A DNA stretch of 64,000 nucleotides from Ophiura sarsii (Eukaryota > Echinodermata > Ophiuroidea > Amphilepidida > Ophiuridae): the NCBI GenBank assembly GCA_035610835.1, contig CM069445.1, positions 33,406,811-33,470,810 of the forward strand, given 5' to 3'. Both the position numbers and the translations under genes were made by a program. Positions 8,348-55,684 of this stretch are shown here, in pieces; within the stretch, counting starts at the first letter, position 1, and each line of letters opens with the position of its first letter. The notes beneath the pieces are model-generated. The model did not search any database. It was not told the origin of the DNA and saw only the letters and a program-made list of their open reading frames with translations.

Positions 8348-9478
8348 ATGGAAACAGCACTATCCAGCAGATCAGTTGCTCTTCTAGCACTAGCTATCCT
8401 CGCCGTACATGTCCATCTAGCAACAGGATTAGAATTAGCAGACTACGAAACCGACTATTTTTCAAATCCTAATCGGGATTCAGAATTCACAAGACTCACG
8501 ATCCACAACGAAACGGGGCGTATCTACATCGGTGGAGGGGATAGACTCTTTAGATTAGCGGGAGATTTGACCAGAGCGGAAACAGTGAATACAGCGGTAG
8601 AGTGTGAAGATGATGTGTGTCCGGTAAATTACAATAAGATTTTACTGGTTGATTACGCGGGGAACAGGTTGATAACGTGTGGGAGTGAAAATGGTGGGAG
8701 TTGTCAGACGAGGGCATTGGACAGTATAGAGGTACCTATAATAGATAATGATACACCAGTTGTTGCACCAGGACAGTTATCAACAGAGGCTCTTATTGCA
8801 CCAGGTCCAAATAACGACGGTGCTAACACACTGTATGTTGCTGCTACATATGACGAGCAGAGGTATGATGTCAATGTAAGACCTGTGAGTAGGAGAATTC
8901 TTAAACCACCAACTAATGATCCTGACTTTATTTTCACCACAGAAAGAAATGCGTATGTATTACTAAACAGAGGACTTTACCCATCTACACCGTTTCTTAT
9001 TACTTACGTTGGAGGGTTTGTAAGAGAGTCATATGGAAGTCACTTTACCTATTTTGTGACAGCACAAAGACAAGATTTTGACCATGTTGATTCAAGGGAT
9101 AGGACTTATGTTTCAAAAATTAACAGAGTGTGCCAGAGTAACGCTCAAGGATTCAACAGCTACGCAGAAGTAACGCTTGAGTGTCATGGTTCAACTCCAA
9201 CAGACAAGTACAACCTTATACAAGCTGTTCATGTTGCTCCAGCAGGGGAAGACCTTGCTACATCTATGGGCCTTAACACAGGAGATGATGTACTTTATGG
9301 GGTCTTTGCCAAGAATGAAGGACAGAATGGCAATATACCAAGCAATCAATCAGCTGTGTGTGTCTTCAAATTAGAGGATATTGAGGAAACATTTATTGAT
9401 GGTATACTGGGATGCTTTCAATGGGCAGGAAACTATGAACTAACATATTTGCAGAATACTGATTGCATAGGTAATTCT
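8348..9478 (+). CDS. MET: exon 1: start codon, signal peptide and most of the Sema domain
   Basis: Encodes residues 1-377, ending in phase 0 at the donor TCT/GTAAGT. The first ATG is followed by a hydrophobic signal peptide (about residues 8-28, rich in Ala, Leu and Val). The rest is a seven-bladed Sema propeller with paired cysteines and the plexin/MET-like phrase RTYVSKINRVC. One large exon covering nearly the whole Sema domain matches the known layout of human MET exon 2. N-glycosylation motifs (NET, NQS) are visible. No KRKKR-type furin site like that of vertebrate MET is present; the nearest basic stretch is RPVSRR near residue 180. A weaker upstream donor at 9471 would break the frame. 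Confidence 0.95.

Positions 9479-55684: not shown

What the first reader, a model, noticed from the sequence alone, without database searches (positions are those of the whole stretch)
8348..55684. A MET-type kinase carrying a full plexin ectodomain (three PSI and six IPT modules)
Seen: 27 exons splice into one frame giving Sema-PSI-IPT-PSI-IPT-PSI-IPT-IPT-IPT-IPT-membrane helix-kinase. Known: vertebrate MET/RON have one PSI and four IPT; plexins have three PSI and end in a RasGAP domain. Exons 6-12 (residues 574-872) are the block missing from vertebrate MET. Inference: this may preserve an ancestral state from which MET lost PSI2-IPT2-PSI3, or a secondary fusion of plexin exons to a MET kinase.
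Basis: partly seen in the sequence, partly recalled or inferred. Interest (0 to 1): 0.9.

Follow-up and report, generated by a model that had tools for sequence, protein, structure and literature searches.

The report
Brittle-star plexin rewired to a kinase
This gene is predicted to encode a receptor with the whole outer part of a plexin and the inner part of a MET-like tyrosine kinase, a kind already described in starfish, molluscs and annelids; in this genome (likely a brittle star's) neighbouring genes have likely swapped outer and inner parts by recombination, which would wire similar sensors to two different outputs.

Summary
Twenty-seven GT/AG exons at 8348-55684 (+) splice into one 1714-residue frame: Sema, 3 PSI, 6 IPT, one membrane helix, a tyrosine kinase with intact motifs. 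It is very unlikely to be an assembly artefact: two neighbouring paralogues hold all 27 exons in order. The architecture is not new: Junqueira Alves et al. 2019 (PMC6374515) named it Met-LP, in Lophotrochozoa and Echinodermata. The closest full-span proteins are from the brittle star Amphiura filiformis (57%); the genome is very likely another species. What seems new is how such genes arise. The 12 echinoderm Met-LP kinases sampled form one clade (99/99), sister to Met (weakly, 87/71) and not from echinoderm Met (AU p 0.00025). Their ectodomains are scattered among RasGAP plexins (7 forced changes; AU p 1e-6). A neighbouring Met-LP (B) shares 18 of 18 ectodomain introns with a nearby RasGAP plexin (dS 0.16) but its kinase half with the window gene (7 of 7 introns, dS 0.17; ectodomain dS 0.66). 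So intron 19 likely acts as a hinge where sensor and output cassettes are re-paired. No RNA was available.

The parts
8348..9478 (+). exon 1: start codon, hydrophobic N-terminus (likely signal peptide, by eye), most of Sema (res 1-377)
   Evidence: paralogues
10025..10216 (+). exon 2: Sema
10407..10550 (+). exon 3: end of Sema
11971..12089 (+). exon 4: PSI1
   Evidence: (PSI 7.8e-5)
12646..12778 (+). exon 5: PSI1 end, IPT1 start
19175..19334 (+). exon 6: IPT1
   Evidence: TIG_plexin 569-652
23082..23178 (+). exon 7: IPT1 end, PSI2 first cysteine
24977..25097 (+). exon 8: PSI2
   Evidence: PSI_PlexinA-B 1.7e-8
26910..27044 (+). exon 9: IPT2
   Evidence: TIG_2 723-811
27964..28059 (+). exon 10: IPT2
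28221..28314 (+). exon 11: IPT2 end
29780..29973 (+). exon 12: PSI3
   Evidence: PSI_Plexin-B 1e-5, just under its cut-off
30942..31096 (+). exon 13: IPT3
   Evidence: TIG 5.8e-8
32652..32769 (+). exon 14: IPT3 end
   Evidence: TIG 868-951
38764..38897 (+). exon 15: IPT4
39837..40001 (+). exon 16: IPT4 end
40913..41006 (+). exon 17: IPT5
   Evidence: module borders by eye
41369..41629 (+). exon 18: IPT5 end, IPT6 start
   Evidence: module borders by eye
41955..42131 (+). exon 19: IPT6; last exon of the plexin-type cassette
42132..42999 (+). intron 19: position of the inferred recombination hinge; in neighbour B, homology to RasGAP plexin X stops 27 bp past exon 19 and intron 19 itself does not align
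43000..43207 (+). exon 20: membrane-proximal stretch, transmembrane helix (res 1266-1286), juxtamembrane; first exon of the kinase cassette
43523..43651 (+). exon 21: juxtamembrane and start of kinase P-loop
43838..43921 (+). exon 22: P-loop end, VAIK lysine
44336..44517 (+). exon 23: helix C to hinge of kinase
   Evidence: (9.8e-9)
44823..44938 (+). exon 24: catalytic loop HRDLAARN
46700..46862 (+). exon 25: DFG and activation loop (one Asp in place of a twin Tyr)
   Evidence: (2.4e-15)
53513..53649 (+). exon 26: kinase C-lobe
55279..55684 (+). exon 27: end of kinase, tail with YVN motif, stop codon

Best explanation
The window holds a 27-exon gene of the Met-LP kind (full plexin ectodomain plus a tyrosine kinase of the MET/TAM group), which is predicted to sense a semaphorin-type ligand and to signal by tyrosine phosphorylation, and which sits in a cluster where the ectodomain cassette (exons 1-19) has likely been re-paired, by recombination in intron 19, with either the kinase cassette (exons 20-27) or a RasGAP cassette. 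Shown: the open gene model, the domain order, intact catalytic motifs, the cluster, one kinase clade against scattered ectodomains, intron-level mosaicism of neighbour B. Inferred: that the exchange was crossing-over or gene conversion, its direction, that other pairs used the same hinge. Untested: semaphorin as ligand, kinase activity, Grb2-type docking at the YVN tail motif, expression.
For: Gene and domains; PDB matches: Plexin-A4 over 46-1186 (461 bits) and MET kinase (252.7 bits, the best single-domain match). Exon order repeated in paralogues A and B, 27 of 27. Kinase tree: 12 of 12 echinoderm Met-LP rows in one clade, 99/99. Ectodomain tree: 7 label changes, all 7 forced by starred branches; 399 of 500 label shuffles are as low, so the label is not clustered at all; Met-LP as one clade rejected, p 9.8e-7. 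Mosaic of B, homologous introns compared one by one: ectodomain half B-X 9968 of 20428 bases in 18 of 18 introns, W-B 188 of 23711 in 1 of 18, A-B 0 in 0 of 18; kinase half W-B 2399 of 5018 in 7 of 7, A-B 2160 of 3402 in 7 of 7; intron 19 of B and X, 0 of 928. dS: ectodomain W-B 0.656 (se 0.041), B-X 0.160; cytoplasmic W-B 0.171 (se 0.028). A second pair, Met-LP C and RasGAP plexin Y, shares the ectodomain (85.6% identity; 3558 of 11817 bases in 12 of 18 introns, 0 of 668 in intron 19). Genome: 16 Met-LP-like kinase places on C5 and 7 RasGAP plexin places, with 3 RasGAP among 7 kinase places at 32.8-33.65 Mb. Purifying selection: kinase exons 22-26 dN/dS about 0.09-0.10.
Against: The window gene itself shows no real intron match to a RasGAP plexin examined (X 48 bases in 2 of 18 introns, Y 0): its own exchange, if any, is older than the one seen in B, or its donor was not among the 2 of 7 RasGAP places fetched. 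W-A ectodomain dS (0.173) and cytoplasmic dS (0.126) are close, so this pair is a plain duplication. Pair C/Y shares the ectodomain, but C's kinase introns match none of W, A or B, so C is not shown to be a mosaic. Sister placement to Met is weak. No RNA, no protein data. Neighbour A carries an in-frame TAG in exon 1, so some copies may be dead.
Confidence: 0.82

Rival explanations
1. Ancestral pairing: a plexin gained the kinase once, before Bilateria diversified; Met is the branch that lost IPT1-PSI2-IPT2 and a PSI; echinoderm Met-LPs kept the whole ectodomain, later overwritten by neighbouring plexins.
For: Kinase tree: echinoderm Met-LP is sister to all Met sampled (87/71), and the brachiopod Lingula Met-LP falls inside the Met clade near its base, unresolved. 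Truncated Mets match Sema and the last IPTs but not PSI2 or IPT2.
Against: The Met-LP/Met node is weak: Met+TAM without Met-LP is not rejected (AU p 0.434) and nor is Met-LP+TAM (p 0.152). Ectodomains cannot support it because they were exchanged.
Confidence: 0.35
2. Independent capture (the 2019 model): a plexin-B of the echinoderm stem acquired a tyrosine kinase separately from the lophotrochozoan case and from Met, then diversified.
For: Ectodomains nest in echinoderm plexins; Lingula and echinoderm Met-LP kinases as one clade is borderline (AU p 0.051); the paper's Sema+PSI tree.
Against: The donor was not the echinoderm Met gene (AU p 0.00025), so an unsampled MET-like kinase donor must be assumed; the paper's argument rests on the ectodomain, which is exchanged.
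Confidence: 0.4
3. Assembly join or fused gene model: separate plexin and kinase genes wrongly spliced together.
For: Long introns (up to about 6.7 kb), tandem repeats and transposon-like pieces in introns; no RNA.
Against: All 27 exons in order in two neighbours, 25 of 25 internal exons with AG/GT in A, starfish and Amphiura database proteins with the same domain make-up.
Confidence: 0.02
4. The kinase is a TAM (AXL/MER/TYRO3) kinase rather than a MET-group one.
For: Scores nearly tie: MET 252.7, MER 249.7, AXL 249.1 bits; profile MET 328, MER 322; AU does not reject Met-LP+TAM (p 0.152).
Against: The best tree puts TAM outside Met-LP+Met (87/71); the C-terminal YVN motif resembles that of several Mets.
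Confidence: 0.12

Closest known systems
Met-LP receptor tyrosine kinases (Junqueira Alves et al. 2019, PMC6374515)
   Same: Sema, three PSI, six IPT, membrane helix, tyrosine kinase; echinoderm; plexin genes close by.
   Different: Another, ophiuroid-like genome; at least 16 kinase places on one chromosome against four Met-LPs in Acanthaster; direct sign of ectodomain exchange with plexins, and one kinase clade in the echinoderms sampled.
Met/Ron receptor tyrosine kinases
   Same: Kinase group, YVN-type tail motif in some members, Sema-PSI-IPT logic.
   Different: Met has one PSI and four IPT; no furin-like R-x-K/R-R site here; the kinase lies outside the Met clade.
Plexins (echinoderm plexin-B type)
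   Same: Whole ectodomain, 60% identical to a brittle-star RasGAP plexin over residues 30-872; exons 1-19 shared with neighbour X.
   Different: Kinase in place of RasGAP; different membrane exon (32% against X).
TAM kinases (AXL, MER, TYRO3)
   Same: Near-equal kinase scores.
   Different: Placed outside Met-LP+Met in the best tree, though weakly.

Membership tests
Met-LP RTK | complete plexin ectodomain: Sema, 3 PSI, 6 IPT | tested here: met
Met-LP RTK | single membrane helix followed by a tyrosine kinase with intact catalytic motifs | tested here: met
   hydropathy; PK_Tyr 4.6e-89; P-loop, VAIK, HRDLAARN, DFG, APE
Met-LP RTK | no RasGAP domain | tested here: met
   no Plexin_cytopl in the protein and no match within the window span
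Met-LP RTK | kinase related to published echinoderm Met-LPs | tested here: met
   one clade with Acanthaster, Asterias, Patiria and Amphiura rows, 99/99
Met-LP RTK | expressed as one transcript | not testable with these tools
   no RNA reads
Met/Ron | truncated ectodomain, one PSI and four IPT | tested here: not met
Met/Ron | kinase inside the Met clade | tested here: not met
   outside a 96/91 Met clade, sister to it at 87/71
Met/Ron | furin-type cleavage site in the ectodomain | tested here: not met
   no R-x-K/R-R in residues 1-1262
Plexin | plexin ectodomain | tested here: met
Plexin | cytoplasmic RasGAP | tested here: not met
TAM | kinase groups with AXL/MER/TYRO3 | tested here: inconclusive
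   best tree says no, AU p 0.152 (AXL not in the tree)

The most novel reading that the evidence does not exclude
Brittle stars keep a combinatorial plexin/Met-LP receptor locus: recombination in one hinge intron keeps moving ligand-binding ectodomains between a kinase output and a RasGAP output, so the same semaphorin code can be rewired from 'collapse' to 'grow' signalling, copy by copy.
Probability: 0.4. Interest if true: 0.75.

Novelty: new member of a known kind. Interest (0 to 1): 0.52.

Why it matters
The gene is a further Met-LP, but its cluster changes the story of how such receptors arise. The only paper found that names the class inferred two independent kinase captures from a Sema+PSI tree. 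Here kinase and ectodomain trees disagree sharply, and one neighbour is an intron-level mosaic, so in echinoderms one kinase lineage has likely been handed from ectodomain to ectodomain. That makes the origin of MET (full plexin receptor that lost a block, or separate capture) a question for kinase rather than ectodomain trees, and gives natural chimeras in which the same sensor is wired to a kinase or a RasGAP.

Tried and rejected
Assembly or model artefact: rejected. Kinase from the echinoderm Met gene: rejected. Met-LP ectodomains as one clade: rejected. Genome being Amphiura filiformis (the published size of 1.57 Gb fitted): judged very unlikely, because an A. filiformis plexin finds at best 62% in its first exon (23 of 536 candidates scored). 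Census by Pfam TIG_2 gave nothing, in the controls either, so it is uninformative; the domain is split over exons. Rfam and tRNA scans of the window: nothing. The first kinase tree had one outgroup row mislabelled (an ABL-like domain of P0127 called InsR); replaced. Rows dropped: two Met-LP fragments (P0017, P0217) and one odd kinase (P0107); also the Eph, tardigrade and Gordionus rows. Of 28 echinoderm Met-LP proteins in the capped lists plus the window were used, 10 plus the window, and 6 plus W, A and B. The first intron comparison over whole stretches was partly misled: a repeat upstream of the window gene, shared with an intron of B, pulled the W-B chain away from exons 1-14 (it gave W-B 0 one way and 2863 the other). 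It was replaced by a comparison of each intron with its own counterpart, which upholds the result. Splice mapping was incomplete for B and X and its script ended with an error on saving. No structure prediction was run: the spliced protein is not letter-for-letter in the DNA, and Pfam had named every module. A search for other copies of exons 17-19 with their introns did not complete.

Full report
OBSERVATION. Twenty-seven exons on the + strand, 8348-9478 through 55279-55684, join into one open frame of 1714 residues; all 26 introns are GT/AG and the phases fit. Against non-coding DNA of the window, blocks of these lengths would all be open with a chance of about 10^-40. Pfam finds Sema, three PSI stretches, TIG_plexin (IPT1), TIG_2 (IPT2), four further TIG stretches and a tyrosine kinase with E 4.6e-89; the strongest hydrophobic stretch is 1266-1286. 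P-loop, VAIK lysine, HRDLAARN, DFG and APE are present.

IS IT REAL. The window lies in a held genome of 1.57 Gb at C5:33406811-33470810. Two other places on the same chromosome, A (33.33-33.365 Mb, minus) and B (33.563-33.640 Mb, plus), hold all 27 exons in the same order. In A, the 25 internal exons E2-E26 all map with AG/GT, 24 at the same length and exon 4 shorter by three bases. Kinase exons 22-26 show dN/dS near 0.09 (W-A) and 0.10 (W-B); ectodomain exons 2-19 W-A about 0.32. An assembly join or a fused gene model is therefore very unlikely. No RNA could be examined.

WHAT IT IS. The architecture is known. Junqueira Alves et al. 2019 (PMC6374515; abstract and passages seen) described Met RTKs with a truncated plexin ectodomain and a second type with a complete plexin ectodomain, Met-LP, in annelid, mollusc and the starfish Acanthaster (four Met-LPs), and noted a plexin-B beside a Met-LP. 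It was the only paper holding both 'Met-LP' and 'plexin' in the library searched. The best full-span relatives of residues 500-1714 are Amphiura filiformis proteins (57% over 100% and 56% over 90%), then, passing over two multi-kinase proteins that match only in the kinase (P0003, P0004), Patiria and Acanthaster Met-LPs (about 43%). The genome is very unlikely to be A. filiformis: an A. filiformis plexin matches it at best at 62% over its first exon. It is most likely another brittle star; this is inferred from nearest relatives.

THE BLOCK MISSING FROM MET. Ten truncated Mets were compared with pieces of the query: Sema and IPT4 matched in 10 of 10, IPT3 in 7, IPT5-6 in 7, PSI3 in 2 (weakly), PSI1-IPT1 in 1 (weakly, over the PSI), PSI2 and IPT2 in none. 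IPT4 falls on the second Met IPT in all 10; IPT3 falls best on the first Met IPT in 4 of 7 and on the second in 3.

TWO TREES THAT DISAGREE. Kinase (46 rows, 272 columns): the 12 echinoderm Met-LP rows, window included, form one clade (99/99); the Mets, with Lingula Met-LP, form another (96/91); the two are sisters at 87/71 with TAM outside. Grouping with echinoderm Met is rejected (p 0.00025). Not rejected: Met+TAM without Met-LP (0.434), Met-LP+TAM (0.152), all Met-LP with Lingula (0.051). Human MET and MER score nearly alike against the window kinase (252.7 and 249.7 bits; the top row of that list is an EGFR construct with two kinase domains, 166 bits each), so 'MET-type' should be read as MET/TAM group, nearest Met. 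Ectodomain (41 rows): the Met-LP label needs 6 changes, all forced by starred branches (42 of 500 shuffles as low). With A, B and the neighbouring RasGAP plexin X added (19 rows): 7 changes, all forced; one clade rejected at 9.8e-7; 399 of 500 label shuffles are as low, so on this tree the kinase label is not clustered at all. Pairs of Met-LP with RasGAP plexin recur: P0129 with P0201, P0001 with P0013, B with X, each at 100/98 or better, C with Y at 100/100.

THE CLUSTER. Of 57 Sema-exon matches in the genome, 41 lie on C5. A kinase search gave 145 matches; 16 places on C5 look like Met-LP kinases (15 at 60% identity or more, one at 50% with stops), a lower bound. RasGAP exons group into 7 places, 6 of them on C5, also a lower bound. 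At 32.8-33.65 Mb, 7 kinase places and 3 RasGAP places are interleaved. Four of the 16 kinase genes (W, A, B, C) and two of the 7 RasGAP genes (X, Y) were examined whole.

THE HINGE. Each intron was compared with its own counterpart. Window and A share introns throughout: 16 of 18 in the ectodomain half (8779 of 11858 bases), intron 19, and 7 of 7 in the kinase half (3072 of 3365). Window and B share 1 of 18 in the ectodomain half (188 of 23711 bases) but 7 of 7 in the kinase half (2399 of 5018); A and B share 0 of 18 and 7 of 7. B and the RasGAP plexin X share 18 of 18 in the ectodomain half (9968 of 20428) and nothing in intron 19; their homology stops 27 bp past exon 19. Synonymous divergence agrees: ectodomain W-B 0.656, W-X 0.639, B-X 0.160; cytoplasmic W-B 0.171. 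B is thus a mosaic: an X-type ectodomain with its introns and a window-type kinase with its introns, joined in intron 19. Met-LP C and RasGAP plexin Y share the ectodomain too (85.6% identity; 12 of 18 introns, none of intron 19); C's kinase introns match none of W, A or B, so it is not shown to be a mosaic. An earlier whole-stretch comparison was partly misled by a shared repeat and is superseded. Protein pairs from other species lose similarity near the membrane: P0129/P0201 go from 87 to 39 to 22% and P0005/P0192 from 68 to 55 to 10% over successive 60-residue windows. Direction and process (crossing-over or conversion) are not shown. The window gene itself has no intron-level plexin partner among the two RasGAP genes examined.

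HOW IT LIKELY WORKS. By analogy with plexins and Met (recalled knowledge), the ectodomain would form a ring that meets a semaphorin-type dimer, and dimerisation would activate the kinase. Of 21 rows examined (14 Met-LP with W, A and B, 6 Met, Lingula Met-LP), 17 have a YxN motif in the tail and 12 have YVN: YVNQ in W, A and B, YVNE in 2 of 4 A. filiformis Met-LPs, YVNK in 4 of 4 Patiria Met-LPs, YVN in 3 of 6 Mets; the other 3 starfish Met-LPs have YxN without V. Such motifs bind Grb2 when phosphorylated (recalled). In W, A and B the first of the twin activation-loop tyrosines is Asp, while the 11 other echinoderm Met-LP rows listed have Tyr-Tyr; whether this alters regulation is unknown. Ligand, activity and expression are untested.

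VERDICT. The repeated re-pairing of sensor and output, seen directly once at intron 19, is the point worth following. Beyond the 2019 paper's polyphyly of Met-LP ectodomains, no report of such exchange was found in the searches made (listings only, except PMC6374515 and PMC11310086, of which passages were seen).

Noticed in passing
P0046, P0049, P0168, P0048, P0109, P0096: Met receptors listed from a spider, a horseshoe crab, a tick, a millipede, a tardigrade and a nematomorph; the 2019 paper reports no Met in Ecdysozoa.
   Followed up: partly
P0162: A Met-LP of the brachiopod Lingula anatina, whose kinase falls inside the Met clade near its base.
   Followed up: partly
P0136: A Branchiostoma belcheri model joins integrin domains to a MET-like kinase; it may be a gene-model artefact.
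   Followed up: no
C5:33363732-33364853 (neighbour A exon 1): An in-frame TAG in the otherwise well-conserved paralogue A.
   Followed up: no
window 46700-46862: Activation loop D-D-Y: the first twin tyrosine is Asp in W, A and B but Tyr in the Amphiura and starfish Met-LPs listed.
   Followed up: partly
window 2772-5732: A stretch upstream of the gene that recurs at 84-97% identity inside an intron of neighbour B; probably a repeat element.
   Followed up: no
window 15574-17031: A 100-base tandem repeat, 14.6 copies, inside intron 5.
   Followed up: no
window about 47290-48500 and 48524-49751: A near-identical direct repeat of about 1.2-1.3 kb in intron 25, seen from repeated ORFs.
   Followed up: no
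window 10742-10975 and 62124-62432 (-): GIY-YIG-like reading frames, probably pieces of Penelope-like elements; the first reached only E 0.019 in Pfam, the second was judged by eye.
   Followed up: no
G000:C472:19124-19327 and C5:22301497-22301700: The same kinase exon match, with identical score, on a small contig and on C5; perhaps an unpurged haplotype.
   Followed up: no
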